This document shows, in pieces, positions 8,715 to 48,546 of a stretch of 48,546 nt of DNA. The position numbers and the translations under genes are program-made. The notes beneath the pieces were generated by a model. That model did no database searches. It saw only the letters and a list, made by a program, of their open reading frames with translations, and was not told where the DNA came from. The stretch lies in assembly GCA_031292625.1 (NCBI GenBank), contig JARLGU010000014.1:1-48546 (forward strand). Reading direction: 5' to 3'. Within the stretch, counting starts at the first letter, position 1. The number at the start of each line of letters is the position of its first letter. Source of the stretch: Capsulimonadaceae bacterium. Lineage in GTDB: Bacteria; Armatimonadota; Armatimonadia; Armatimonadales; Capsulimonadaceae.

Positions 8715-10853
8715 TTACCCTGCCCCCGCCGACTTCCACAGGACATAAGAGAGCGCGACGCACGTCGCGGCCAGAATGCAGGCCCACAGCTGCCAGCGCC
8801 CTAGCGAATCCGGAGCTCGTACCATTGCGGCGGCTTGAATGACGAGCAGGACAATCGACGGGACGGCCGTTTGGGCGAGCATAGGCGTCAAATCTCCGCC
8901 ACGTCCTGAATGCGAGAGCTGAGCGAAAAGGATCGATCCCGCCGGTGCAAGCAAGATCGCGGCGGCCGGAGCAAATCGCTCCGCCCATCCTGCGTCCGCC
9001 GCGCAGGCCACAGCCAGCAGGGATGCGCTCAGCAAACCGGAGAGGATCATGCCAGCGACGTACACCGGGTGCGCCGGATGCGCTAACGTAAGAGCGAGGC
9101 CGACGACCAGAGGCAACGCGACAAGTGCGCCAAGAACCAGATACCAATAGAAAATCTCCGCAAATTGCCGTCGTGGAGGCAATACGCGAACCCGGACGCT
9201 CATTTCGCGCTTTCCGCCCGTTGTCTCCAACACGATCACATCGCTGTAATCGCCCGGGCCATCGAGGAGCATCGATGCGTCCGCAACCACGGTCAGAGGC
9301 TGCCTGTGACGCGTAGCAAACGTCATCGGCGTCACATGAACCCATCCCGGAAGCGACGCGACGCGCCCCTGCAAGAGCCCATGCCCCACGTTTCGCAGCA
9401 GAACGCGCTGCAGGCGAGTTTGTCCATGCCGCAAAATGCCAAAGTCCACGTCGTCTTGGCTTAGGCCGGCGTGCGCGCCGCCGCGCAATTTTAGTTCGCG
9501 ACGCAAAGCGCCGTGACGAGGATGACGTGCAACGCCTTGCTCAAGCACCTCGATAACCGCCGTGTTATCGTTGATGGCGCCAAGCGCGCGCGCAAGCAGC
9601 AGATAGTAGGACGCCCGCCCCGGATCGAGATTGACAGCCCGCCGCAATACGCTCGCCGCCTCGGCGTACGCGCCCGCGCGCAGCAAACGGCTCCCAATCC
9701 CGGCCTCGCGACGCGCCGTGCCGGTCGTGTCGACGCCCGCGCGATACAAGAACTCGCGCAGTTTTTGATCTTCGTCAATAGCCGTATCAGACTCGATGGC
9801 GCGAGCAACCCGCGCGAGAGGCTCTTCGCCCAAATCGATCAACCAACGCGAGAGCGCCCCCGTCACCAACGCCAGCCGCGCATCTTCCCAGTCCTCGGTC
9901 GCCGCATTCAGAAACTGATCGATGTCGCTAGCCCCGATAAGCGTCGGCGGCTCCGTCGTCATCGGATCGCACGGTGTTTGCATCGAAGAGCCGTTAGGGC
10001 TCGTTGCAGGCGGCAAGGGGGGAAGCTCGACCGCGCTAAGGCCAAGCTTCGCTGTGAGTGCGCGAAGGTCGGCCAGCAAGGCCTCGGCGGATTGGTAACG
10101 TTGAGCCTTGTCGCGCGCGAGCGCCTTCAGAGCGATCCGATCGGCCTCAAGCGGAATCTCGGGCACGAAAGTACTCGGAGCGACAATTGTCTCCTCGCTT
10201 ACGGCGCGTTGCCAGGCGAACGGATCCTTTGGACGCGCGACGCTGAAGGGACGCCTTCCCGTAAGCATCTCGTACAAAATCACGCCGACCGACCACAGGT
10301 CCGACTGAGCATCGCTTCGAGCATCCCCGCCGTAGTCCTCCGGCGCCATGTACGCATATGTCCCCGCGCCGCCAGCGTACGAGTTCGTGCCGAGCACCTC
10401 GGCCAGACCAAAATCGACCAGCTTCACCCGGCCTTCCGTACCGATTAATATATTGGCGGGCTTAATATCCCGGTGAACCGTATGGTGTGCGTGGGCAAAG
10501 GCAAGCCCATCGCATATCTGGCTGCCGATGTCGATTGCCTGAGCCAGCGCAAGTGGACCATCCGCATCGCGCAGCACGTCCTGCAGGTTGCGTCCTTCGA
10601 CGAACTCCATGTCGATCACGACCTTGGCGCCGATCGTATCCACTGAGTTGACGCGAACGATATTGGGATGGCGCAAACGATCGAGAACGCGCGCCTCCTC
10701 TAAAAACCGGCTCTTCTCTTCGCCCTGCGCGGCAATCTCTTTGATCGCAACCGTCCGTCGAAGCAGTGTGTCGCGCGCCAGGTACACGATGCTCGATGCG
10801 CCATGGCCAAGGACATCCAGACGCTCGTACTTACCAAGCATTCCTAAAGACAT
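8715..10853 (-). CDS. Membrane Ser/Thr protein kinase with TPR-like and Ig-like regions
   Basis: This is a Hanks-type kinase (712 aa). The glycine loop LGHGASSIVYLARD is near residues 15-28, the ATP lysine is K38 in VAIKEI, the catalytic loop is HRDIKPANILI, then DFGLA and MAPEDYGG. After the kinase domain (to about 270) comes a linker, a TPR-like helical stretch (about 385-450) and a beta-sandwich stretch of the kind found in Hsp70- and kinase-linked proteins (about 465-565). Four or five C-terminal membrane helices follow. All regulatory parts before the helices should be cytoplasmic. Its start overlaps the region just after the PP2C stop (10858), so the two are probably co-translated. They form a reversible phosphorylation pair. 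Targets are unknown. Confidence 0.92.
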   Translation of the reverse strand: MSLGMLGKYERLDVLGHGASSIVYLARDTLLRRTVAIKEIAAQGEEKSRFLEEARVLDRLRHPNIVRVNSVDTIGAKVVIDMEFVEGRNLQDVLRDADGPLALAQAIDIGSQICDGLAFAHAHHTVHRDIKPANILIGTEGRVKLVDFGLAEVLGTNSYAGGAGTYAYMAPEDYGGDARSDAQSDLWSVGVILYEMLTGRRPFSVARPKDPFAWQRAVSEETIVAPSTFVPEIPLEADRIALKALARDKAQRYQSAEALLADLRALTAKLGLSAVELPPLPPATSPNGSSMQTPCDPMTTEPPTLIGASDIDQFLNAATEDWEDARLALVTGALSRWLIDLGEEPLARVARAIESDTAIDEDQKLREFLYRAGVDTTGTARREAGIGSRLLRAGAYAEAASVLRRAVNLDPGRASYYLLLARALGAINDNTAVIEVLEQGVARHPRHGALRRELKLRGGAHAGLSQDDVDFGILRHGQTRLQRVLLRNVGHGLLQGRVASLPGWVHVTPMTFATRHRQPLTVVADASMLLDGPGDYSDVIVLETTGGKREMSVRVRVLPPRRQFAEIFYWYLVLGALVALPLVVGLALTLAHPAHPVYVAGMILSGLLSASLLAVACAADAGWAERFAPAAAILLAPAGSILFAQLSHSGRGGDLTPMLAQTAVPSIVLLVIQAAAMVRAPDSLGRWQLWACILAATCVALSYVLWKSAGAG

Positions 10854-12759: not shown

Positions 12760-12979
12760 ATATCTCTGACATTGTACCAGACTCGCATACTTCGCGTGAG
12801 CAACTACCCTGAGCGTCGGTTCACGACTGGCGCAGGGGACCACGGCGTGCGTGCCTCCACGAAGCGATAGCTGAGTGATATTCTCCATGCTGCTCGGCCA
12901 ACTGAGATCCCCTGTTTCTTAAGTCGAATTTACGAGTGAAAGGTTTCGAGGCACATTACAGTGGAGACTGGTAAACGCC

Positions 12980-13327
12980 ATGAGGTCAACGAGCAAATGG
13001 AACGACATAGTTATCGATTCCGATAGGCCAAATTACGAGCAAGAACACGAACATATGTTCTTTATCGCACTACAAGCACAAATCGAATCAATATGCGAGG
13101 ATGCCCTATGGAACCAGATCCAAACTTTAGGCTACGCAGGAAAACCGTGTGTCTGGATTGTTCTCCTTCTGGCCGAGACGCTGCCAGATCGAGCCGCCAA
13201 AGCGCGAGAAGAGCTAATCAGCGCGGTGGTCGATGAGGCTAGGAACCGGATACGCGAATCGGTCCCGAGTGAGCACATTGAGCGCTACCAGTCCTGGCTA
13301 CGGCGCGACAAACTGCCAATAAGTTGA
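12980..13327 (+). CDS. Unknown protein upstream of toxin module 1
   Basis: This 115-aa protein is not recognised. It is acidic in its first third, has one hydrophobic patch (PCVWIVLLLAETLP) and ends in a charged helical region. There is no signal peptide. GGAG lies about 13 bases before the ATG, a loose fit. It ends 60 bases before the accessory gene of toxin module 1 and runs in the same direction. A perfect GAACATATGTTC palindrome (13049-13060) lies inside it. The second toxin locus has no counterpart, so membership of the system is uncertain. Confidence 0.55.
   Translation: MRSTSKWNDIVIDSDRPNYEQEHEHMFFIALQAQIESICEDALWNQIQTLGYAGKPCVWIVLLLAETLPDRAAKAREELISAVVDEARNRIRESVPSEHIERYQSWLRRDKLPIS
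13049..13060. promoter_or_regulatory. Perfect GAACATATGTTC palindrome (LexA-box-like)
   Basis: This is a 12-base perfect palindrome of the form GAAC-N4-GTTC, which matches the core of the Bacillus-type LexA (DinR) box. It lies inside the 12980 gene, 327 bases before the accessory gene of module 1. The same ten-base core recurs only at 13871 and 39303, both in toxin loci. Confidence 0.45.
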
Positions 13328-13386: not shown

Positions 13387-13857
13387 ATGACACTCCAAGC
13401 CAATGGCGGCAATCTCACAACAGAAAACGCCGCGACACAAGCAAGCTCCGTTCCCCCAAATGGCGCGGTCAGCGACGAGTGCGGATTTGTATTCCAGTGT
13501 ATTGCCGTCAAGCAACCAGTCCCGTCGCAAGCTGGCGTCCCTCCCGGCGGAACGATGGCCTCCGGTGCGCCATCTGGCGGCGCGACGGCTCCGGGAACAA
13601 CCAAATGGATGAACATTCCACTCGATAATCCCGACTCGGTACTCGGCACAAAACCGCCAGGAGGCTCGCCTGATCCGGTCGACGCACTCATGGGACTGGG
13701 TTTGTCGCGAGCGTGGGCCGAGCATCTCGCGACGCCCTCGCCTCCGCGAGGCTCGGAGGCGCTGTCTTCCAAGGAACGCAACGAATTGATACGAGCGGCG
13801 TCGGACAAGGCATTGCGGGATCTGACGGATGAACTGATGTCTTCACGTCGATTTTAG
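13387..13857 (+). CDS. Toxin-associated accessory protein, DELMSSRR-tail family (module 1)
   Basis: This 156-aa protein belongs to no family I recognise. It is a clear paralogue of the protein at 39365. Both have W-x-x-(I/V)PLDNP-x-x-VLG (here about residues 75-88), then LSRAW, and end in ALRDLTDELMSSRRF. The N-terminal half is low-complexity and differs between the two. There is no signal peptide or membrane helix. In both loci the gene directly precedes the toxin (here by 53 bases), which suggests a chaperone, adaptor or loading partner. ATG has GAGGAA upstream. The three-gene order is reminiscent of Myxococcus sitBAI, without evident sequence relation to SitB. Confidence 0.75.
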   Translation: MTLQANGGNLTTENAATQASSVPPNGAVSDECGFVFQCIAVKQPVPSQAGVPPGGTMASGAPSGGATAPGTTKWMNIPLDNPDSVLGTKPPGGSPDPVDALMGLGLSRAWAEHLATPSPPRGSEALSSKERNELIRAASDKALRDLTDELMSSRRF

Positions 13858-13910: not shown

Positions 13911-14987
13911 ATGGCGAATGAGAAGGTAGCTTCTAGCGGCTCAAGCCAGGCGGATGGTATAACGATCGAACCCGCCGGTTCGCTGCGCAGAGTGGAACAG
14001 GGTTCAACGGGCGAAATGCCGGTGACGATCCGTTCGCGCGGCTCGTTTTCTGGAGAGGTCACGCTGACCGTATGGGCGCAAGGCGGCGGGATCGCCGTGA
14101 CCGTCGCCCCCGCCATCGTGACCGTGTCGCCCGGCAAGCCCGCGCAAGCGGTGGTGCGCGGGACCTTCACCCTCAGCGCGGCGCTCGGCGACCACGCGGT
14201 CCGTGTCTTGGCGCAGGGCATCGCGGCGGCGCGGGAAATGACACAGCCGGCCGTGCTGGACGAACCCGTGCAAGACGGCGGAACGCAGCTCCCCCGCCTT
14301 TGGACGATCGCCGACCAGGGGAAGCCAGCCGCGCCGGCGCGGCCGGCGAGCGACGACGATGATCCGGAGCACGCTCCGATCTCCTCGATCGCCCGGGCAG
14401 GAGGCGCGCCTAAGTTATCGACTGACCCACTCGCTTCGGTTAAGCAGGCGGCAAAGCGGATCAAGGCATTTGCCCTTGGGACCGGCGCGCAGATCCTTTC
14501 GAATCTGCCAATCGGCCGTGGCGAGAAGGCGGAAGAGGAGGCCGCCAAAGCGGCTAATGGCCTGGATGCCGCAAACAAGCTTGAGAGCATCGCAGCCCAG
14601 ACCGGTAAAGCGGCATCCGAGAACCTTGCCGCCGTTGGCGAGAGGCTCAAGAATGTCGCGGCGAGCGTCCAATCGGCCGCCAAGACATTCGCGGTTGAAA
14701 AGCACCACCTCGTGCCGCGCCACCTAAACGGCGGCGACGAAGCCGAAAACATCATCGTCATGCCGAAGACCCAGCATCGGGAACTGACAAGCGACATGAA
14801 CAAGTTCATGCGAAACGTCAAGAACGACCTCGGCGACATGCAGGCTAGACGCGGAAACAGCGGGGAAAAAATACAAGACAACTTCACACCCGAGGAGCGA
14901 AACAATGCGCTGAGAAGGTTCTACGCCCATTACAAAGACAAGTATCCTGAAGCAGCCAAACAGTTCTTCGCGAAATGGGGAGAATGA
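13911..14987 (+). CDS. Polymorphic toxin with Ig-like N-terminus and HNH-type nuclease C-terminus
   Basis: This protein has 358 aa. Residues about 15-110 form a beta-sandwich that aligns with the N-terminus of the 40126 protein (QG-x-x-GEM-x-V-x-IRS, then TVSPGKPA against TISPDEPA). An Ala-rich linker and helical region follow. The C-terminal 100 residues carry HHLVPRH (265-271) and the later NIIVMPKTQH, the His-His/Asn/His pattern of HNH-type nuclease toxins. No signal peptide or lipobox is present, so export needs a dedicated route. AAGGAGG is placed about 13 bases before the ATG. It is followed 48 bases later by a candidate immunity gene. DNA cleavage is inferred from the motif only. Confidence 0.82.
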   Translation: MANEKVASSGSSQADGITIEPAGSLRRVEQGSTGEMPVTIRSRGSFSGEVTLTVWAQGGGIAVTVAPAIVTVSPGKPAQAVVRGTFTLSAALGDHAVRVLAQGIAAAREMTQPAVLDEPVQDGGTQLPRLWTIADQGKPAAPARPASDDDDPEHAPISSIARAGGAPKLSTDPLASVKQAAKRIKAFALGTGAQILSNLPIGRGEKAEEEAAKAANGLDAANKLESIAAQTGKAASENLAAVGERLKNVAASVQSAAKTFAVEKHHLVPRHLNGGDEAENIIVMPKTQHRELTSDMNKFMRNVKNDLGDMQARRGNSGEKIQDNFTPEERNNALRRFYAHYKDKYPEAAKQFFAKWGE

Positions 14988-15035: not shown

Positions 15036-15689
15036 ATGAGCGAGCTCTCTGAGATTGTCGCGGAGCTACGGAAAAACGGCACTATTGTCGGACACAGGAT
15101 ATCTTACGACTTCAACGACACGGACATGTGGAAAAATGACGATCCTCGGCTTCCCAAGTGCCCACGCTGCGGCATACGAACCGAATTCTTCGCCACCAAT
15201 CCCGACTATAAGCCCAAGAAACGATACAAGCCGGACTATGCGCCGGAGTTGGCCATCAACGAAAAGACGTCACTGTCGGCAACTTATGACGGCCAGACCA
15301 TAGCGTCGCGTGCCTTCCGAGACTGGTGCGCCAAGCAGGGCTATTCCGGCCTGGAGTTTCGCGAACTCCCGGTAGATCCTTCTCACTTTCATTTTCTTGT
15401 CAACAACGTTGTGCCGTTTGACCCCGAGACTGCACATTCTCGGTTTGAGAATTATTGTCCAGAGTGCAAAAACTTCAATGCCGTGGCCGTTGGATTCTAC
15501 ATCTTGAAGGTCTCGAGCCCGCTTAGCGATGGCATCTACAGGACCGACATGTTGTTCGCAGGTGGCAAGGAGAAACATCCTCTCTTCATCGTTGGAGCGG
15601 AGACCAAAGCCAAGATGCTTGCAGCAAAGATGAAAGGGCTGGACTTTGACCCCGTCTACGCCAGCCCGGCAATGCTCGAAACGCCATAA
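15036..15689 (+). CDS. Candidate immunity protein with two CxxC motifs
   Basis: This 217-aa protein has CPRC at residues 42-45 and CPEC at 141-144, which probably form a zinc site. This two-CxxC layout resembles the Myxococcus double-CXXCG paralogue family, whose members sit next to toxin genes and several of which act as immunity proteins. It is cytoplasmic, as expected for protection against a nuclease. AAGGA lies eight bases before the ATG. The position directly after the HNH toxin is the main reason for the immunity call. Family assignment is from memory of the pattern, not a search. Confidence 0.7.
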   Translation: MSELSEIVAELRKNGTIVGHRISYDFNDTDMWKNDDPRLPKCPRCGIRTEFFATNPDYKPKKRYKPDYAPELAINEKTSLSATYDGQTIASRAFRDWCAKQGYSGLEFRELPVDPSHFHFLVNNVVPFDPETAHSRFENYCPECKNFNAVAVGFYILKVSSPLSDGIYRTDMLFAGGKEKHPLFIVGAETKAKMLAAKMKGLDFDPVYASPAMLETP

Positions 15690-15901
15690 CGCCGCGACAT
15701 GGCGGCAAGTCTGCTAAACTAGCAACGCGCCGCGCCCAAACCGTGCGCGGCTGGTCTCCGTGTGCGCGTGCGTGCCTTTCTCGACTCGCGGCGCCACACG
15801 CTTTGGACGGCGTCCAACAGATAAATCGGCGGCGAAACGCTCAGCCCCGCATCGCGACGTGTCACGCGACGCGTGCGTGTTTTCTATTCGTTGAGGCATG
15901 C

Positions 15902-15907
15902 TATAAT
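15902..15907 (+). promoter_or_regulatory. Extended -10 promoter, leaderless start
   Basis: TG-C-TATAAT occupies 15899-15907, an extended -10. The expected transcription start falls at about 15914, the A of the ATG of the ASCH gene. No ribosome site is present before that ATG. The -35 region is poor, which is usual with extended -10 promoters. Confidence 0.6.
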
Positions 15908-15913
15908 ACGTAT

Positions 15914-16270
15914 ATGTTTGCACTTAACTTCTACAGTGAGCTCTACGGCGATGTCATCAAATCCGGTCGCAAGTCCGCGACCATCCGGATCGGCGACAAG
16001 AGCGACAAGTACTCCACCGGACAAATCGTCTGGGTCACCCTCGGCGCGCGATACGCCCGCCGGAAAAAGCTCTTTAGCGCCATCGTTGATAAAGTGGAAG
16101 TCAAACCCCTCGGCGAACTCTCCCCGCGCGATATCCAGCGCGAGAACCCCGAGTTCCGAAGCGTGGACGATGTGCTAAAGCTGCTATCCCAGATCTATGG
16201 CGAACCAGTAACCGCCGATCGTATCGCGACGATCATCTACTTCAGCCCTGTCGACGAATACGACCTGTAG
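15914..16270 (+). CDS. ASCH/PUA-like domain protein
   Basis: This 118-aa protein fits the ASCH fold, a PUA-related beta-barrel thought to bind RNA or modified nucleosides. It has a short N-terminal beta region, the GDKSDKYSTGQIVWVTLG segment typical of the barrel rim, then a helical part and a final beta strand (IATIIYFSPV). The start is at the first Met of the homologous part; a longer frame from 15743 reads through GC-rich DNA with no coding look. The mRNA is probably leaderless. An intrinsic terminator follows at 16317. Members of this group have been tied to translation coactivators and to acetylcytidine hydrolysis; the role here is open. Confidence 0.75.
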   Translation: MFALNFYSELYGDVIKSGRKSATIRIGDKSDKYSTGQIVWVTLGARYARRKKLFSAIVDKVEVKPLGELSPRDIQRENPEFRSVDDVLKLLSQIYGEPVTADRIATIIYFSPVDEYDL

Positions 16271-39330: not shown

Positions 39331-39364
39331 AAGAATGAAATTGTTAAGGAGGTCAGCCAGAGAA

Positions 39365-40075
39365 ATGCGAGACACTCAGCGGCTACACGTAACCGGCGGA
39401 ACTGACGTGCACCCGGTAGAGCACGCCGCCACGAGCGCTATGACGCTTGAGGCGTCCGGCTGGTTCGAACTCACGTGCCAGCTTGCGTCGCCTACAAGCG
39501 TTCCCGAAACACCGCTCGCCGAGCAGTACGTTTCCTTTCCATTACGGAGGGAACATCCGTACGGTACGAAAAGTGGCGATCCCGCCGCGCTCGGCAAGAT
39601 GGTTCGGAAGGCCAGCGGTAGTCTTGACGAAGGGATTGATCCGCGAACCGGCGAGGCGTTTGCCAGTGAACAGGAGCGGAGCGAGGCACGGCGCGACATC
39701 GATCAGATTCGACTTGCGCTCGCGGCAAAGGCGCGGGAAGCGGCGGCAAGCTGGCTGGCGAGGCTGGAGCATGCCCTGCCTGCCAAGGGCAGCGCTGCGA
39801 ACGGCGCGCCACGGCCATCGCCGGCATCGGCGGCATGGGAAGATGTGCCTCTGGACAATCCCGAAAAGGTTCTCGGTCCGAGTGCGCTCGGATCTGGCTC
39901 GGACGAAACACGGGCACTGCAAGAACTCAGTGTCTCGCGGGCGTGGCTTGCACGCTTCGTACGAGAAATTGCGCAAAAGGTAATCGAGCAAGAAAGCCCC
40001 AAGACAATCGATGCGGCGGTCGACAAATCGCTTCGAGCGCTGAGCGACGAACTGATGTCATCGCGAAGGCTTTAG
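39365..40075 (+). CDS. Toxin-associated accessory protein, DELMSSRR-tail family (module 2)
   Basis: This 236-aa protein is the longer paralogue of the 13387 protein. The shared part is WEDVPLDNPEKVLG followed by LSVSRAWLARF, and the shared end is ALSDELMSSRRL. It adds a charged helical middle (about residues 85-150) that is absent from the short one. There is no signal peptide or membrane helix. A perfect AAGGAGGT lies 11 bases before the ATG at 39365, which is why I prefer it to the ATG at 39335. It ends 51 bases before the toxin gene. A role as chaperone, adaptor or secretion partner is inferred from synteny alone. Confidence 0.78.
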   Translation: MRDTQRLHVTGGTDVHPVEHAATSAMTLEASGWFELTCQLASPTSVPETPLAEQYVSFPLRREHPYGTKSGDPAALGKMVRKASGSLDEGIDPRTGEAFASEQERSEARRDIDQIRLALAAKAREAAASWLARLEHALPAKGSAANGAPRPSPASAAWEDVPLDNPEKVLGPSALGSGSDETRALQELSVSRAWLARFVREIAQKVIEQESPKTIDAAVDKSLRALSDELMSSRRL

Positions 40076-40125: not shown

Positions 40126-41547
40126 ATGGGTAATGAAATTGTGGAAGCGGGTGCGACGTCTGCTCAGCCGTTCGAGTTCGACTTTGTGGAGCCCAGCCTG
40201 GCGGTTCCGCAGGGTCGTTCCGGCGAGATGGCGGTGCGCATTCGTTCCATGGCGGGCTATGCGGGCGAACTGGCGCTGTCCGGGACGGCCGTTCACAAAA
40301 CCGGCATGCCGCTTACGAACGTGACGGTGGTGGCCTGGCCGGACCGCGTGACGATCTCGCCGGATGAACCGGCCATCGCGATGGTTCGGGTGCAGCTCGC
40401 GCCGAAAGCGTATCCGGGCAACTTTTACCGCATCGGCGTCACCGCGCGAGCCGTTGCGCCGCTTGCAGCCGCGCAAGCCGTGCAAGCCGTGCCGGTTGCC
40501 GCTCCGGCGTTCCCCGCAAGCGCTGCGCCGCAAACGGCCGAGGCGCACGGAGAGCTATACGAGCAGACCGAGGGGCGGATCGGAGAGACGGTGACAGCCA
40601 GTGGCGCACCGTTAGCCGGATCGGTCGCCGCCGGAGAGGGTGCGGCGAAGGCCGGTGAGGACGCGGCGCGCGCGAAAGCGGCGACCGCGCCCGCGGAGGG
40701 CAACGGCGGCGCTGCTTCGGGAGCGGAAGCTGCACAGCCGGACGCGAGCACGGGCGCGGAACCATTTCCGGCGGTGGTGCCGGAGAATCCTGGCGGGACG
40801 CTGCATTTGGTCGCGGACAAGAAGAACGAGAACGCCTGGTCAACGTTCTGGGATCGTGCCGGTCAATGGGCGCAACGGCATATCGTAGGAACGATGAAGC
40901 CTGGCGGTCCCGTACTGGGCGGCAGCAAAGAGAGCCCGGCTGCATCGGCTGGGTTGACATCGGAGGATACAGGCGGCGCTCTCAAGCCTCTCGACGTTGC
41001 CCCGAAAGCGTCGCAAAAGCAGGCAGCCGAGAACACCAAGAAATTCGTCAAGGAGGCTATTGGACAAACTGCGGCTATAACGGCGCCTGAAGGGAAGGCG
41101 GGAGAGGAGGCTGCAGGAGGCTTGGCGGCCGCAAAGACGATTGGCGAGAAGGTCGCGGCATTGGTAAAAAACGAGAACAGCCCAGGCGTGCATTTGATTG
41201 CCAAGCACGTAGGAAAGAGCACGGAGCAGCTCGCCAATCGGCTGGCGCATGAGATGGAGAAAGATGCCGTGTCATCGTTCTTCAACATCAGGACCGCTGC
41301 AGATATGGCTGCGCGGACGATCCAGGATAACAAGGCCCGAATCGACGACTGGCTGGTTAATAGGCCAAGAACTACTCTCCAGCTTGAGGTTGCAGGCGAT
41401 CCCCATCGCAAACTTGGTCAGATCCTGTATCGCGGGAAGATAGTCTCAGATGACGCGTATGATGCGGTCGTGGTTCTTAAGGGAGATGGACAGGGTTCAT
41501 ATAATGTTTTGACCGCCTTCCCGGCCAAGGCGCCTGGCAAGAAATGA
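40126..41547 (+). CDS. Polymorphic toxin with Ig-like N-terminus and RNase A-like C-terminus
   Basis: This protein has 473 aa. Residues 10-120 form a beta-sandwich homologous to the 13911 protein. An Ala/Gly/Glu-rich linker (about 120-260) follows, then a helical stretch, then a toxin domain from about 350. That domain fits the bacterial CdiA-CT RNase A-like family (Pfam RNAse_A_bac as I recall): HLIAKHVG (H356, H361), a helix with IDDWLVN, LGQILYRG, and a terminal LTAFP (T463, F465). Family members use His, Arg, Thr and Tyr; the Tyr position is Phe here. There is no signal peptide. Start ATG 40126 has GAGG six bases upstream. The immunity candidate follows 67 bases later. Confidence 0.82.
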   Translation: MGNEIVEAGATSAQPFEFDFVEPSLAVPQGRSGEMAVRIRSMAGYAGELALSGTAVHKTGMPLTNVTVVAWPDRVTISPDEPAIAMVRVQLAPKAYPGNFYRIGVTARAVAPLAAAQAVQAVPVAAPAFPASAAPQTAEAHGELYEQTEGRIGETVTASGAPLAGSVAAGEGAAKAGEDAARAKAATAPAEGNGGAASGAEAAQPDASTGAEPFPAVVPENPGGTLHLVADKKNENAWSTFWDRAGQWAQRHIVGTMKPGGPVLGGSKESPAASAGLTSEDTGGALKPLDVAPKASQKQAAENTKKFVKEAIGQTAAITAPEGKAGEEAAGGLAAAKTIGEKVAALVKNENSPGVHLIAKHVGKSTEQLANRLAHEMEKDAVSSFFNIRTAADMAARTIQDNKARIDDWLVNRPRTTLQLEVAGDPHRKLGQILYRGKIVSDDAYDAVVVLKGDGQGSYNVLTAFPAKAPGKK

Positions 41548-41614
41548 GTACCTTGCCAGACATTTTAGGTCCGTACATATTATTAAGCTTGACTGTTGAA
41601 TGGAGGTGGCTGCT

Positions 41615-42115
41615 ATGGCTAAGAGCGAGAGCAACTTGATGCAAATTGAGTTTCTAAGGATCAATTCATATCTAACGAGTTTTAATCTAGAGGTGTTGAG
41701 CGCGACTTCTGATCGGCGTAAAGATGTAGAGATTGCCCATGATTTCGGTGTCGAATACAAGGGAGATCTTAATACATTTTTCGCGCAGGTTGAACGGTTT
41801 CTGAAGATCCGTCCGTGGCCCTGGTGGGAGATTAGGAACTTCACCAACCGTCGCCTTTCGAACGAGTACAAGGCTCGACGGTGGTTCGAGAAGATGCTCC
41901 TGATCACGCGTACAGCTTATGACGATCCGAACGCCAAACCGACCGGCAAAGCGCCGCCGGAGCCGGAACGGACGCCTGAGCAGCGCCAACTGGCAGCTGA
42001 TCTCGGACGCGTGACGAGGGCCTTGGTTCACGACCCGCAGAACCAAGCTGAGCATGAACGCGAACTGAAGTCCGTGATCGACAAGATGTTTGGTGTCGAC
42101 GAAGCCGAGGAGTAG
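41615..42115 (+). CDS. Candidate immunity protein for the RNase A-like toxin
   Basis: This 166-aa protein is not recognised. It is mostly helical, soluble and rich in charged residues, with a Pro-rich hinge (PTGKAPPEPERTPEQ) before a final helical segment. GGAGGT lies seven bases before ATG 41615. Position directly after the toxin and cytoplasmic location suit immunity against an RNase. The local GC is lower than in the toxin linker, which is common for exchanged modules. Confidence 0.65.
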   Translation: MAKSESNLMQIEFLRINSYLTSFNLEVLSATSDRRKDVEIAHDFGVEYKGDLNTFFAQVERFLKIRPWPWWEIRNFTNRRLSNEYKARRWFEKMLLITRTAYDDPNAKPTGKAPPEPERTPEQRQLAADLGRVTRALVHDPQNQAEHERELKSVIDKMFGVDEAEE

Positions 42116-42176
42116 TATTCAGCCCAGCGGCGTGGCGTACCAGGCGCTCTACAGTGCCGGGCCGCATTTTGATAGA

Positions 42177-42290
42177 GGCGGATCGGCGAGACGGTGACGG
42201 CCAGTGGCGCACCGTTAGCCGGATCGGTCGCCGCCGGAGAGGCGGCGGCGAAGGCCGGTGAGGACGCGGCGCGCGCGGAAGCGGCGCAGC
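42177..42290 (+). repeat. Truncated copy of the toxin linker (cassette 2 entry)
   Basis: From about 42177 the DNA repeats the linker of the 40126 gene (RIGETVTASGAPLAGSVAAGE region, near 40576-40680) at high identity. It begins abruptly after an in-frame TAG (42173-42175). It has the form of a displaced fragment joined to another toxin end. Confidence 0.8.
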
Positions 42291-43396
42291 CGGACGACGA
42301 CGCGCTGAGCGGATATAACGTGCCCGCGGAAGTGGGCGCGACGGGGGACGGTTCCGCCCAACCGGCAAACGCTCGTGGGGTAGGCGTACCAGACGGCGGC
42401 GCTTTCCGGATTGGCGGCGATGCATTGAGTAACGACGATGTGCCGCTGGACGAAGACGCGAAAAGCGGTGAGGCCAATCCGGGAGCGACCACCAGCGCAC
42501 CGGGCAACGGGACGACTGCAGCGGTCACACAGCACTCGCAACCAGAGCAGTCTGCTGGCTCGCCGCCGGGACCGGCAGAGACTGCGCCCACGACAGCGGA
42601 TCTGACATCGTCGTCGCGGACGAGTGCGGAAGGGACTGCGGCTCTCGACGACGGGACGGTGGTGAGCGGCAGCGGCGATCCGCTGGCGAGGACAGTGGCA
42701 GGCGGTGGAGCGACAAAGCTAACATCTCCACAGGAACAGGATTTCGGTTCAAGCGATCTCAATATCCAAGTCGAGGAGATACCACCGGCCTCTGCGCTCA
42801 ATCCGGGCTCCGACGCAATGCTTCCGTTTGACAAAGATACAAATCTCGAAGCGCCAGACATACATAAAATCAGCGCACCTGATGCGAAGGACCACGGAAA
42901 AACAGATCATCCAGAACATGGCCAGATGCGGCCTATAAATGAAAACACGCTCCATATGGTCGAAGCCTTCGAAGGCTGGAAAGAAAACGCCTATCGCGAT
43001 ATTGGAGGCGTTCTAACAATCGGATACGGACACACAAGGGGTGTACAAGAAGGGCAGCATATGACGCGCCGAGAAGGAAAAGATATTCTTCAGGATGACC
43101 TAGAAAGTGCTCGCCGTGATGTAGTACGTCTCATTCATGTCCCGCTTACGGACAATCAGTACGGGGCTCTCGTTTCGCTAGTCTTCAATGCCGGATCGAG
43201 GCATGTAGCTCCTGATTCTCCGATCGGTAAGCATTTGGCCGCAGGGGAATACGATAAGGCTTCCAATGATTTCCTGCTTATAAACAAGTATCATAAGCAT
43301 GACAATAATGGAAAACCTGTTGGACTGCCGATCGAGTCTAAAGGCCTGACAAACCGCCGCAAAAAGGAACGTGAGTTGTTTCTAAAACCGGACTAA
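42194..43396 (+). CDS. Orphan toxin cassette with GH24 muramidase domain, 5'-truncated
   Basis: This open frame (400 codons from GTG 42194) lacks the Ig-like N-terminus and has no ribosome site. An in-frame TAG lies just upstream, so it is probably not expressed. After the shared linker comes a disordered Ser/Thr/Gly-rich stretch, then a complete GH24 (phage T4 lysozyme type) domain. Glu260, Asp269 and Thr275 are spaced as the catalytic E11-D20-T26 of T4 lysozyme, within FEGWKENAYRDIGG and LTIGYGHT; TDNQYGALVSLVFNAG follows. It would cleave peptidoglycan if moved behind a full N-terminus. A lipoprotein immunity candidate follows. Confidence 0.78.
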   Translation: MTASGAPLAGSVAAGEAAAKAGEDAARAEAAQPDDDALSGYNVPAEVGATGDGSAQPANARGVGVPDGGAFRIGGDALSNDDVPLDEDAKSGEANPGATTSAPGNGTTAAVTQHSQPEQSAGSPPGPAETAPTTADLTSSSRTSAEGTAALDDGTVVSGSGDPLARTVAGGGATKLTSPQEQDFGSSDLNIQVEEIPPASALNPGSDAMLPFDKDTNLEAPDIHKISAPDAKDHGKTDHPEHGQMRPINENTLHMVEAFEGWKENAYRDIGGVLTIGYGHTRGVQEGQHMTRREGKDILQDDLESARRDVVRLIHVPLTDNQYGALVSLVFNAGSRHVAPDSPIGKHLAAGEYDKASNDFLLINKYHKHDNNGKPVGLPIESKGLTNRRKKERELFLKPD

Positions 43397-43552
43397 TCCA
43401 CTGTTCCGTAACTGGCGCTTACCAGATATTCATGGCGCGATATGCCATTTTGCTCTTGATTCGAAATCGAGATTGGACAGAGTTGCACATGTTGCGTATT
43501 ACATCGGCCGTACGAGGCTCCGATTGCATACGGAATCCGTTTGGGGAAAAAT

Positions 43553-44476
43553 ATGATGCGTGGTTGTTTGCTGCGAAAAATCGTAATCGGATTCCTTATT
43601 TTCTTAGGTGTAACTATCAGCTCCTGCGTCAAATCTTCAGCGAATGGAGTGTCGTCTCATTTTTCGATTTCCATCGCTAGGTCTTTCCATTTTCCAATGG
43701 AGTACAGCGAAGTAGTTTTCGATTTTGCGTTTGCGATCTCGGGAAATGGGCATGAACTGGCTACGGTCCGCAATTCAAATATCGTTAAGCTTTGGAACAT
43801 CGACAGCGGCGCGCAGTGCGGCCGAATCGATGTCGGAAAAAACATTGTGAGCAAAATCGCATATTCAAGCGACTCCAGGAATATGGCTTTAGTGTATCGT
43901 AGCGATGGCAGAACGAACGACAAGATCGCATTATGGGATATTGAGAGTCGAAAACTCTTGCGTACGATCACATGTGGAGGCGGAGTTTGGTCTCTAGCTT
44001 TTGCAGGCAACAATAAGTCGATATTTGCGCAGATTAACACTCAGTCGCGATTTGCTATGGCGCAATACGATCTCAATACTGGAACTTGTATAAGACGTCG
44101 AATTTTGTCTGGCATTAACTTGTATGTAGCGTCCATAAGTTCCAATAATCTCATCGCTGTAACGCCTCAGAATGAGGTAGAGATTATGGATTCTCAATTT
44201 AAACATCGTGATTCTTTTCGTGTGTCGAGCATCTATATTGGCGACATGGCATTCCTAAATGATAAATTGCTGTTGTATTCTGGAACAGACCCTACTGACC
44301 TCAACGATCTTGTTGATCATTCGTACCTGTATGATATAGCAAAAGGCAAAACGACGGATAACGTTGACATTCTAGGCCATGTCGAAGAACTTTCTTCGGC
44401 GCGATACGCGCCAAGGCTGGCTATTATGAGGCATGATGGGACAATCGATATTGTCGAGTATGCTTTGACGAAGTGA
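43553..44476 (+). CDS. WD40/propeller-like lipoprotein, candidate immunity to the muramidase
   Basis: This 307-aa protein has a lipoprotein signal (KIVIGFLIFLGVTISSC) with lipobox ISSC. The rest resembles a WD40-type propeller: SGNGHELATVRN, VKLWNIDSG, IALWDIESRK, YDLNTGTC. Export to the periplasm is exactly what protection from a peptidoglycan-cutting toxin would need. The region is markedly AT-richer than its surroundings, which suggests acquisition. GGGGA precedes ATG 43553; 43556 is an alternative start. Immunity is inferred from position and localisation. Confidence 0.68.
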   Translation: MMRGCLLRKIVIGFLIFLGVTISSCVKSSANGVSSHFSISIARSFHFPMEYSEVVFDFAFAISGNGHELATVRNSNIVKLWNIDSGAQCGRIDVGKNIVSKIAYSSDSRNMALVYRSDGRTNDKIALWDIESRKLLRTITCGGGVWSLAFAGNNKSIFAQINTQSRFAMAQYDLNTGTCIRRRILSGINLYVASISSNNLIAVTPQNEVEIMDSQFKHRDSFRVSSIYIGDMAFLNDKLLLYSGTDPTDLNDLVDHSYLYDIAKGKTTDNVDILGHVEELSSARYAPRLAIMRHDGTIDIVEYALTK

Positions 44477-44582
44477 TGTCTTGCCAGCCCAGACTATTCA
44501 AGTCATGCCCAAATCGCCGCGTACTGGTTTTTGATTCGTGCTCGAACGCATAATCCGAGCTTAGGGCAACATAAAGTATCTC

Positions 44583-45090
44583 ATCCGTTCCATGGCGGGC
44601 TATGCGGGCGAGGTGGTGCTGTCCGGGACGGCCGTTCACAAAACCGGCATACCGCTTACGAACGTGACGGTGGTGGTCTGGCCGGACCGCGTGACGATCT
44701 CGCCGGATGAACCGGCCATCGCGATGGTTCGGGTGCAGCTCGCGCCGAAAGCGTATCCGGGCAATTTTTACCGCATCGGCATCACCGCGCGAGCCGTTGC
44801 GGCGCCTGCAGCCGCGCAAGCCGTGCCGGTTGCCGCTCCGGCGTTACTTGCGAGCGCTGCGCCGCAGGCGGCCGAGGCGCACGGAGAGCTGTACGAGCAG
44901 ACCGAGGGGCAGATCGGGGAGACGGTGACAGCCAGTGGCGCACCGTTAGCCGGATCGGTCGCGGCCGGAGAGGCGGCGGCGAAGGCCGGTGAGGACGCGG
45001 CACGCGCGAAAGGCTACGGCGGCGCTGCTCCGGGAGCGGATGCTGCGCAGCCGGACGCCGACGATGCGCTGAGCGGATATGACGCGGCCG
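44583..45090 (+). repeat. Copy of the toxin N-terminus and linker (cassette 3 entry)
   Basis: From about 44583 the sequence repeats 40241-40680 of the toxin 2 gene at well over 90% identity by eye. It covers the second half of the Ig-like domain and the linker. It begins mid-domain, after an upstream in-frame TAG, without ribosome site or promoter. The final QPD-x-DALSGY stretch matches cassette 2 more closely than the full-length gene. Confidence 0.85.
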
Positions 45091-45215
45091 GGCGATGTTG
45101 CGCGACGCAACGGATTTCGTCAAGCACCCTTCCACTGATTCGCATTTGCCTCCAGCTGCGGAGAAGTTCTGGAGGTGGCTCAAAGTGGTCTTGCCAGAAT
45201 CTGCCGGTTTCGTGA
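44592..45215 (+). pseudogene. 5'-truncated, frame-disrupted toxin fragment (cassette 3)
   Basis: The frame reads MAGYAGEVVLSGTAVHKTG, an internal Met of the Ig-like domain, and continues through the linker to ALSGYD. After this point the translation (AAGRCCATQRISSS) loses coding character, and the sensible frame shifts to the 90-codon ORF at 45095. The toxin domain is therefore missing, or cut at the junction. It is probably a decayed remnant. Confidence 0.7.
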
Positions 45216-45367: not shown

Positions 45368-45437
45368 GAACTATTATCCAGGGACCAAGTATATCTTGCC
45401 CCTGGATGTAATCATTGCGGAGAGAGGCAGGGACGGC

Positions 45438-45866
45438 GTGGAAGAAGGATACAGACCGCAGTTAGGGTGCGTCGAAACAGCGATCTACTTCTTAATCGTA
45501 TTGGCAGGAATCGAAACAGCCAGACTGATAGGTTTCCACGGCGCCATTCTACACAAGGTTTTCGCAGTGCTAGCAGGTCTATCTGTCACTATATTGCTGA
45601 ACCAGGTACTGGTCTACCTTACCTATGGACAAGACATACCAGTGTGCGAATGCGGAAAGATCCATACGTATCGCAACATCTCTACTGAAATAGCCGTCGA
45701 CACCCCAAACGCGAAAGCTTTCGCTTGTGAGGAATGCGGTCGTAGATATCTTAAGATAAGACCGTACTACTTCATGCTAGACGATGAACATTGTCCTGTG
45801 CCCTACAAGAAATACAGCTTCTGGCGAGGTTGGATACGGGACAGCAGAAAGAGAGAAAGAAAGTAA
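45438..45866 (+). CDS. Membrane protein with zinc ribbon, candidate immunity of cassette 3
   Basis: This 142-aa protein has two membrane helices (about residues 12-30 and 42-62), then a cytosolic or external domain with CECG and CEECG, which form a likely zinc ribbon, and a basic tail. It is not recognised. The GTG at 45438 with AGGG is a reasonable start; TTG 45396 is an alternative. Small membrane proteins at this position in toxin arrays are often immunity proteins. The matching toxin is not intact here. Confidence 0.55.
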   Translation: MEEGYRPQLGCVETAIYFLIVLAGIETARLIGFHGAILHKVFAVLAGLSVTILLNQVLVYLTYGQDIPVCECGKIHTYRNISTEIAVDTPNAKAFACEECGRRYLKIRPYYFMLDDEHCPVPYKKYSFWRGWIRDSRKRERK

Positions 45867-46713: not shown

Positions 46714-48233
46714 GTTGAATTGTTTTGTTACCACACAACACAGTTCGCAGAGGACACCCGTTGGCTATCGATACGTCTCTTTCGTTCGAATTTCCTGCCA
46801 TTCGCGGCAAAGATTTGACCGGCCGTTTCGACGGCGGCGACATAACCACAGACTGCGGCGCACTTCTTGTCTCTCTCGCCGACCGGAAGATTGGCCTCTC
46901 GGCGGCGATTGCGGACCAGATTATCGATAAGCGCCAGAGCAGCAAGGTTCGTCATTCGGTGGCCGACCTGCTGCGGCAGCGGATTATCGCCATCGCCTGT
47001 GGCTACGAGGACGCCAACGATTTCGACACGCTGGCTTCCGACCCGGCGATAAAGCTTGCCTGCGGCCGCGCCCCCAAGAGCGATCCGAACCTGGGCAGCC
47101 AGCCGACGATTAGCCGGTTCGAGAACGCCGCAAGCCGCAAGGATATCGCGGCGATGGGCTATGCGATCGCCCGGCGAGTGGTCGCCCAACTGCCCCGAAA
47201 AACCCGGCAGGTTGTCATCGACATCGACGCCTACGAAGATCCGTGCCACGGGCAGCAGGAGCTTGAGTTCTTCAACGGATACTACGGCTCGCACTGCTAC
47301 GTGCCTCTGGCGGTCTTCGTGACCGGCCCCGACGGCGTTCAGCGCCTGATGGGCGCGATCCTGCGCAGCGGCAAAGGCGGCAATATTGGCGTCGCGAGCG
47401 CCATTGACGTGGCTGTCGCGGCTGTCCGCGAGCGCTTCCCGAAGACCAGGATCATCCTGCGGGCCGACAGCGGTTTCGGCAATGCGGACGTTCTGAGCCT
47501 GTGCGACAAGCTCAAAATTTCGTACGTGCTTGGGCTTGCCGGCAATCGCAGGCTTCAGACACTCTCGACCAAGGCGCAGATGCTGGCCTGTTGGCTGTAT
47601 ACGTTCCGGAAGGACCTGTGGCTCGCCGCTGGAGTCTGCCGCGTGTTCCGGCAGTTCGAGTACAAGGCGGGCACGTGGGACCGCAAGCGGCGGACGATTG
47701 TCAAGGCCGAGGTCACCAACGGCGACCTCAACCCGCGTTACATCGTCACGAATCTAACTTGCGTGCCGGAGAAAGCGTACGAGTTCTACTGTCAGCGCGG
47801 CGATATCGAGAACCGGATCAAGGAGTTCAAACTCGACCTCTTCGCCGGGCGAACAAGCTGCCACCGCTTCAAGGCGAACCAGTTTCGCCTCATGCTGCAC
47901 GTGGCAGCCTCGGTCTTGATGACAGCCATTCAGGAGGCGGCCAAGAATACCGCCCTTTCGCGCACTCAAGCGGGCACGATTCGGCTGCGCCTCCTCAAGC
48001 TGGGCGCTCGCGTCGTAGAGACCACTCGCCGCATCTGGCTGCACATGAGTAGCTCGTTTTCGCACCAGGCGACGTGGGCGGCGGTTTACACAGCGCTCGG
48101 TCCATAGACGGCTAGTCTTGTCGCCCAAGATGCATCGCTGGCCGTCGGAAGCGGCGCCACAGGCGCTTCAGCACGACTCCTTGGCCCCCTGGTGCACGGA
48201 TTGACGGCCATTTAGCCCCCAAAACAGTTCAAG
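46714..48233 (+). mobile_element. IS1380-family insertion sequence
   Basis: The element is defined by its transposase. Candidate ends are an imperfect inverted repeat GTTGAATTGTTTTG (46714-46727) and CAAAACAGTTCAAG (48220-48233), 12 of 14 matching. That gives about 1.5 kb, a usual size for the family. A target-site duplication is not evident, so the true ends may extend by some bases. Confidence 0.7.
46761..48107 (+). CDS. IS1380-family transposase
   Basis: This 448-aa DDE transposase is of the IS1380 family (DDE_Tnp_1). It begins at TTG 46761, with AGAGGA six bases upstream. Family features are DGGDITTDCGALLVSLADRK at the start, VVIDIDAYEDPCHGQQELEF with the first catalytic Asp and the family-typical GQQE-x-x-FFNGYYGSHCY, ILRADSGFGNADVLSLCDKL with the second, and the YCQRGDIENRIKEFK segment (Y-x-x-R-x-x-x-E) with the Glu. 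It is full length and looks intact, so the element may be active. Confidence 0.92.
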   Translation: MAIDTSLSFEFPAIRGKDLTGRFDGGDITTDCGALLVSLADRKIGLSAAIADQIIDKRQSSKVRHSVADLLRQRIIAIACGYEDANDFDTLASDPAIKLACGRAPKSDPNLGSQPTISRFENAASRKDIAAMGYAIARRVVAQLPRKTRQVVIDIDAYEDPCHGQQELEFFNGYYGSHCYVPLAVFVTGPDGVQRLMGAILRSGKGGNIGVASAIDVAVAAVRERFPKTRIILRADSGFGNADVLSLCDKLKISYVLGLAGNRRLQTLSTKAQMLACWLYTFRKDLWLAAGVCRVFRQFEYKAGTWDRKRRTIVKAEVTNGDLNPRYIVTNLTCVPEKAYEFYCQRGDIENRIKEFKLDLFAGRTSCHRFKANQFRLMLHVAASVLMTAIQEAAKNTALSRTQAGTIRLRLLKLGARVVETTRRIWLHMSSSFSHQATWAAVYTALGP

Positions 48234-48471
48234 AAATACGCCGACCGATATAGCCGGCGCCTGGACGCTATTCAAACCACCCGGAATTGCTCGCGTCCCG
48301 CAATTCTGACCGAATTGACGCTACGAGGAAGACGCTCATGAATAGGTCAGGCTAGTAAAATAACTATGCGTCGGCGCTTCTGCTGTGTTATGATTGCTGT
48401 CGGAATGGATCGCACCCCTGCGTGAGACAACAGGTTAAGGTGGTATCCTCAGAAAGAGAGAAACCACCATC
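48108..48471. other. Region between the two insertion sequences
   Basis: These 364 bases contain the right end of the IS1380 element. They then contain non-coding DNA leading to the probable left end of an IS3-family element near 48390-48430 (TGATTGCTGTCGGAATGG, then CACCCCTGCG). No gene is seen. Confidence 0.4.
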
Positions 48472-48546
48472 ATGTCACTCAGTCGTCGCAGGTTCAGTAA
48501 GGAGTTCAAGCTCCAAGTCATCCGTGAAATCGAGGCGGGCAAGTCG
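48472..48546 (+). CDS. IS3-family transposase orfA, N-terminal part (truncated by window edge)
   Basis: The first 25 codons read MSLSRRRFSKEFKLQVIREI and onward to EAGKS, typical of the Tnp_1-type helix-turn-helix that opens the IS3-family orfA. The rest lies beyond the window. Confidence 0.85.
   Translation, partial: MSLSRRRFSKEFKLQVIREIEAGKS

What the first reader, a model, noticed from the sequence alone, without database searches (positions are those of the whole stretch)
40126..40500. Shared Ig-like N-terminus without any export signal
The toxins at 13911 and 40126 start with a homologous beta-sandwich and no Sec, Tat or lipoprotein signal. Muramidase cargo in cassette 2 shows that the system must reach the periplasm of a target. 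The Ig-like domain is therefore probably the address tag for an unidentified injection or contact-dependent system, such as a contractile injection system encoded elsewhere.
Basis: inference. Interest (0 to 1): 0.72.

Follow-up and report, generated by a model that had tools for sequence, protein, structure and literature searches.

The report
Signal-less modular antibacterial toxin cassettes
Two bacterial toxin genes share the same front end, an immunoglobulin-like domain with no export signal and a conserved partner gene just upstream, and carry swappable killing domains with likely antidotes; none of the known injection machines we looked for was found in the genome, so how the toxins leave the cell is an open question.

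Summary
The proteins at 13911 (T1) and 40126 (T2) share an Ig-like N-terminal domain (BLASTP 7e-10; AlphaFold2 beta-sandwich, pLDDT 80), and no in-frame upstream sequence could hold a signal peptide. T2 ends in a CdiA-type RNase A-like domain followed by an immunity candidate. Downstream lies a tail of orphan cassettes without starts: linker plus muramidase with a lipoprotein-like beta-propeller immunity candidate, then a truncated Ig-linker copy. Two remnants lie on other contigs. This is the anatomy of a polymorphic toxin system that exchanges toxin tips by recombination. The 'address tag for a contractile injection system' is not supported: the 96%-complete genome gives no sheath, VgrG-type spike, VipB or VirB4 match and no WXG100 above cut-off; its only FHIPEP is flagellar FlhA. 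The closest fold is an Ig linker of secreted enzymes. The U/Ig pair was not found in 290 other genomes of the phylum, nor in scans of GTDB species, plasmids and phages. Export is unresolved: lysis release, flagellar export, an undescribed machine, or none. New variant of a known kind.

The parts
13387..13857 (+). U1: upstream partner protein (156 aa, no signal); conserved C-terminal ~85 aa
   Evidence: 43% identity to U2 over the C-terminal domain; no relative found elsewhere
13911..14987 (+). T1: signal-less toxin, Ig-like N-terminus (about 13926-14228), linker, HNH/LHH-like C-terminus (about 14700-14984, motif HHLVPRHLNGGDEAEN)
   Evidence: BLASTP to T2 7e-10; C-terminal HNH assignment is weak: Pfam HNH 0.13, IscB HNH region 0.0021, homing endonuclease PHROG 0.026 plus motif inspection
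15036..15689 (+). I1: candidate immunity, zinc-ribbon-like (CPRC..CPEC)
   Evidence: position directly after T1; sub-threshold zinc-ribbon and Gmx_para_CXXCG hits
39335..40075 (+). U2: upstream partner protein (246 aa, no signal)
   Evidence: final DELMSSRR is held through synonymous changes
40126..41547 (+). T2: signal-less toxin; Ig-like domain about 40165-40461, Ala-rich linker about 40462-41145, RNase A-like toxin 41191-41523
   Evidence: Ig fold; PF18431 E=7.2e-21; PDB 5e3e E=5e-7
41600..42115 (+). I2: candidate immunity to T2 RNase, no known family
   Evidence: position; no Pfam, NCBIfam or PDB match
42176..43396 (+). T3': orphan cassette: linker fragment plus T4-type lysozyme (42965-43369), no Ig domain, no credible start
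   Evidence: Phage_lysozyme 2.4e-31; E-8-D-5-T triad EGWKENAYRDIGGVLT; linker 113 nt at 94.7% to T2; stop codons directly upstream
43541..44476 (+). I3: candidate muramidase immunity, beta-propeller with lipoprotein-like signal (..FLGVTISSC); probable start ATG 43553
   Evidence: WD40/beta-propeller hits from 1e-10, below curated cut-offs; hydrophobic window 2.80; lipobox read from the sequence by eye
44562..45215 (+). T4': orphan fragment: Ig-like domain from residue ~39 plus linker, runs into unrelated sequence
   Evidence: 83% identity to T2 Ig; 507 nt at 88.8%
45396..45866 (+). possible orphan immunity (membrane protein with CxCG..CxxCG)
   Evidence: position and composition only
46725..48107 (+). 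transposase-like ORF closing the tail; a second insertion sequence begins at about 48470 at the contig end
   Evidence: read from sequence by eye, family not tested; the second element is also at the end of contig C43

Best explanation
This is a polymorphic (interbacterial) toxin system with an unusual carrier. A three-gene cassette encodes a partner protein U, a toxin T (constant Ig-like domain, flexible Ala-rich linker, variable C-terminal toxin) and a likely immunity protein I. New toxin tips arrive by homologous recombination within the Ig/linker region, which pushes old toxin-immunity pairs downstream as orphans without starts (muramidase module, truncated Ig module). Shown: the architecture, the homology, the missing signal, the orphan tail, and no match to contractile, VirB4 or WXG100 markers, with only a flagellar type III core. 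Inferred: the Ig-like domain is a folded spacer or surface-presentation module; U is a cytosolic partner (chaperone or adaptor) of T; T leaves the cell without Sec, most simply by release on lysis of a fraction of producers, bacteriocin-like, then binds and enters neighbours. The contractile-injection route is less likely in this genome.
For: Constant N-terminus with unrelated C-termini. T2's RNase A-like domain matches PF18431 and PDB 5e3e, the CdiA-CT of Yersinia kristensenii. Orphan tail with linker/Ig copies 89-95% identical in DNA; stop codons and no credible start before the lysozyme module, as described for CDI and Rhs orphans, which start at the junction and lack initiation signals (PMC9086364, PMC3967940). 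Lysozyme triad intact next to a lipoprotein-like propeller. U is present at both full cassettes; of the 16 identical residues in its last 26 codons 9 use different codons, and 5 of 8 in DELMSSRR, so it is held at protein level. A third U-end/T-start junction survives on contig C43. No sheath, VgrG, VipB or VirB4 match, WXG100 below cut-off, FHIPEP only as FlhA beside FlhF.
Against: No lysis gene, receptor-binding or translocation domain was identified, so the lysis/bacteriocin step is inference by elimination. The genome is 96.4% complete in 65 contigs, so one machine cluster could be missing; very divergent machines would escape Pfam models. T2 has Phe where a pairwise alignment puts active-site Tyr278 of the Yersinia RNase, so its activity is not certain. 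I2 has no known relative.
Confidence: 0.45

Rival explanations
1. U and the Ig-like domain together form the loading signal for a one-step secretion or injection machine that is undescribed or too divergent to be recognised, with U as adaptor or chaperone.
For: U is constant, adjacent, signal-less and under protein-level conservation at its C-terminus; one cargo type is periplasmic; the usual machines were not found.
Against: No machine-like genes recognised among the ORFs around either cassette (read by eye, not all scanned); U/Ig pair found in 1 of 291 genomes of the phylum, so a dedicated machine would have to be equally rare or generic; the Ig fold resembles ordinary linkers.
Confidence: 0.18
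2. Decaying remnants: a toxin locus acquired by horizontal transfer without its delivery machine, now being broken up by recombination and insertion sequences, and no longer deployed.
For: Truncated copies at 44562, C43:171877 and C7:30045; insertion-sequence-like ORFs at the end of the tail and on C43; no relatives in the phylum.
Against: Both main cassettes have intact U, T and I frames, and the U1/U2 C-termini keep identical residues through synonymous changes.
Confidence: 0.2
3. The toxins are exported through the flagellar type III apparatus, the only export core of that kind found in the genome, using the disordered first ~15 residues (M[GA]NE..) as signal and U as chaperone.
For: One complete FlhA with FlhF beside it; polar N-terminus before the Ig domain; small acidic partner upstream (U1 pI 5.1).
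Confidence: 0.08
4. The toxins are delivered by a contractile injection system (T6SS or eCIS).
For: Signal-less toxins with conserved N-termini are typical cargo there (e.g. the RIX class, abstract of PMC10435454); the assembly is not complete (96.4%).
Against: No sheath, spike or VipB in the genome although the same searches ring in E. coli.
Confidence: 0.07

Closest known systems
CdiA-CT/CdiI orphan arrays of contact-dependent inhibition (e.g. CdiA-CT of Yersinia kristensenii, PDB 5e3e)
   Same: RNase A-like toxin tip (PF18431), downstream immunity candidate, orphan toxin-immunity modules without starts downstream
   Different: no Sec signal, TPS domain or FHA repeats on the carrier; the carrier is a ~110-residue Ig-like domain with an upstream partner U
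SitBAI cassettes of Myxococcus xanthus (outer membrane exchange)
   Same: three-gene order accessory-toxin-immunity; variable C-terminal nucleases; association with mobile elements (PMC5562445)
   Different: SitA carries a lipobox and SitB a type I signal; T and U carry neither
Rhs orphan systems
   Same: main gene plus displaced tips without starts that can be reactivated by recombination (PMC3967940)
   Different: no RHS repeats and no T6SS found
Signal-less bacteriocins (colicin/pyocin type)
   Same: no export signal, nuclease and cell-wall cargo, adjacent immunity (general knowledge, not tested)
   Different: no receptor-binding domain, translocation domain or lysis gene recognised
Ig-like linker domain of Micromonospora viridifaciens sialidase (PDB 1wcq, 1eut)
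   Same: best structural match: 86 residues, rmsd 1.9, 24% identity, Z 8.7
   Different: there an internal linker of a secreted enzyme; here the N-terminal domain of a signal-less toxin

Membership tests
Polymorphic toxin system (general) | constant N-terminal carrier with interchangeable C-terminal toxin | tested here: met
   T1 and T2 share the Ig N-terminus, C-termini unrelated; orphan shares linker with a lysozyme tip
Polymorphic toxin system (general) | immunity gene directly downstream | tested here: inconclusive
   genes are there (15036, 41600, 43541) but no family assignment or functional proof
Polymorphic toxin system (general) | orphan/displaced toxin modules | tested here: met
Two-partner CDI (CdiA) | Sec signal and TPS domain at the N-terminus | tested here: not met
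Two-partner CDI (CdiA) | CdiB transporter gene in the genome | not tested
T6SS effector | T6SS sheath and VgrG in the genome | tested here: not met
   PF05943 and PF04717 absent, E. coli control positive
eCIS cargo | contractile sheath and spike in the genome | tested here: not met
   PF04984, PF04717 absent, controls positive
SitBAI (outer membrane exchange) | lipobox on the toxin | tested here: not met
   no signal sequence and no room for one
T4SS-delivered toxins | VirB4 ATPase in the genome | tested here: not met
   PF03135 absent, Caulobacter control positive
T7SS LXG/WXG toxins | WXG100-type helical N-terminus or partner | tested here: not met
   beta-sandwich N-terminus; only a sub-cut-off WXG100 hit inside an 811-aa frame
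Rhs | RHS repeats | tested here: not met
   no Pfam RHS match in T1 or T2
Sialidase/NEW3-type Ig-like domain | sequence profile match plus fold | tested here: inconclusive
   no Pfam match at E<=10; fold Z 8.7
Colicin-like bacteriocin | lysis-dependent release and receptor-mediated uptake | not testable with these tools
   needs experiment

The most novel reading that the evidence does not exclude
The U protein plus the Ig-like N-terminus is the recognition module of an undescribed non-Sec delivery route for interbacterial toxins, in a bacterium where none of the searched markers of T6SS, eCIS, VirB-type T4SS or ESX systems was found.
Probability: 0.18. Interest if true: 0.85.

Novelty: new variant of a known kind. 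Interest (0 to 1): 0.5.

Why it matters
Polymorphic toxins are usually sorted by their delivery half. Here the delivery half (U plus Ig-like domain) matches no described trafficking domain, and none of the searched marker genes of the usual machines is in the genome. If the toxins work, their export route is something current annotation does not recognise, and the constant U/Ig pair gives a clean handle to find it. If they do not, the locus is a well-preserved example of a toxin array stranded without its machine.

Tried and rejected
Contractile injection, T4SS and T7SS: searched in the whole genome, not found. Type III injectisome: the one FHIPEP scores over the FlhA cut-off and under the SctV cut-off. 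Relatives of U: none in 291 phylum genomes apart from E 0.005-0.01 noise, none in the GTDB pattern scan, viral contigs, plasmids or phages. Relatives of the Ig domain: weak hits (E 5e-5 to 0.05) in other phylum members; those inspected are Ig-like repeats of large, mostly extracellular proteins or chance frames, none in a toxin of this kind; none in the GTDB scan, viral contigs, plasmids, phages. U structure: the AlphaFold2 model is low confidence (pLDDT 63, two long helices), so no fold search was made. Foldseek of the Ig domain against PDB and viral models gave no match below E 0.001. PADLOC: no match. Sequence search of PDB with the Ig and U profiles: nothing useful. Alternative upstream starts carrying a signal: excluded by in-frame stops.

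Full report
Observation. T1 (13911-14987, 358 aa) and T2 (40126-41547, 473 aa) share their N-terminal ~110 residues (BLASTP 32% identity, 7e-10; 2.7e-6 against the whole genome). The common start M[GA]NE is followed by a short polar stretch and a beta-sandwich (AlphaFold2 pLDDT 79.9). Open frames extend only 7-8 codons upstream of each start and the N-termini have no hydrophobic segment.

What the domain is. No Pfam, NCBIfam or PADLOC model matches it. Structure comparison by VIA-align 2 places it with Ig-like linker domains of secreted enzymes: Micromonospora sialidase, Z 8.7, 86 residues, rmsd 1.9, 24% identity; subtilisin-like Vpr, Z 8.5. These values stand only slightly above the tool's stated background (7-8), and Foldseek's own E-values are 0.01 or worse, so this is a fold resemblance, not proof of descent. 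Weak profile hits in other genomes of the phylum include similar Ig-like repeats of large extracellular proteins. The domain looks like an extracellular-type Ig module recruited to a signal-less toxin (inference).

The missed partner. Directly upstream of both toxins, 50-53 bp away, is a homologous signal-less gene: U1 13387-13857 and U2 39335-40075 (E=4e-13 in the genome). The C-terminal ~85 residues are 43% identical and end in ALxDLxDELMSSRR[FL] or a close variant. In the last 26 codons 16 residues are identical and 9 of them are encoded by different codons; in DELMSSRR it is 5 of 8. The match thus reflects protein-level constraint, not a recent DNA copy. A third U-end/spacer/T-start junction remains on contig C43. 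U is as constant as the Ig domain.

Cargo and array. T2 ends in an RNase A-like domain (PF18431 7.2e-21; PDB 5e3e 5e-7), the toxin of Yersinia kristensenii CdiA. T1 ends in an HNH/LHH-like motif (HHLVPRHLNGGDEAEN), supported only weakly by profiles. After T2 and its immunity candidate I2 (41600-42115) comes a tail: a frame that starts right after two stop codons with the T2 linker (113 nt, 94.7% identity) and continues into a T4-type lysozyme (2.4e-31) with intact E-8-D-5-T triad; then a beta-propeller protein with a lipoprotein-like signal (43541-44476), well placed as periplasmic immunity to a muramidase; then a second Ig-linker copy truncated at both ends (44562-45215), a possible further immunity gene, and transposase-like sequence. 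A linker-only remnant lies on contig C7. Displaced tips without starts, downstream of a full gene, are the known signature of CDI and Rhs orphan modules (PMC9086364, PMC3967940).

Delivery. In the genome (5.77 Mb, 96.4% complete), searches gave no phage/eCIS sheath, VgrG-type spike, VipB or VirB4 (positive controls rang), one sub-cut-off WXG100 hit inside a long frame, and one FHIPEP that passes the FlhA cut-off with FlhF next to it. Two-step routes need signals that are absent. The remaining routes are release by lysis, flagellar export, or an unrecognised machine. Elimination favours lysis, weakly; a stranded, undeployed array is a real alternative given the truncated copies and the rarity of the U/Ig pair (1 of 291 genomes of the phylum; none in other collections).

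Comparison. It works like a polymorphic toxin system with tip exchange. It is not a member of CDI, Rhs, SitBAI, T6SS, eCIS or T7SS by the features tested. The sitB-sitA-sitI order in Myxococcus (PMC5562445) is the nearest organisational parallel, but there both SitB and SitA carry export signals.

Verdict. A real system of a mostly known kind, with an unusual carrier-partner pair and an open delivery question. New variant of a known kind; interest 0.5.

Noticed in passing
window 48374-48546 and L009 (G000:C43:161000-174005) 12780-13006: The same insertion sequence lies at the right end of the window's contig and at the end of contig C43, where a truncated U/T junction follows it; the two contigs may be neighbours.
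   Followed up: partly
L041 (G000:C7:20000-36000) 10045-10250, minus strand: A T2-type linker fragment (86% identity) without toxin or Ig domain sits between unrelated genes, next to short direct repeats.
   Followed up: partly
window 15036-15689 and 45396-45866: Both candidate immunity proteins carry paired CxxC-type (zinc-ribbon-like) motifs; a sub-threshold match to Gmx_para_CXXCG was seen for the first.
   Followed up: no
window 41191-41523: In the pairwise alignment T2 has Phe at the position of active-site Tyr278 of the Yersinia RNase A-like toxin.
   Followed up: no
window 15743-16270: Small protein after cassette 1 that resembles an ASCH-type RNA-binding domain by eye; not tested.
   Followed up: no
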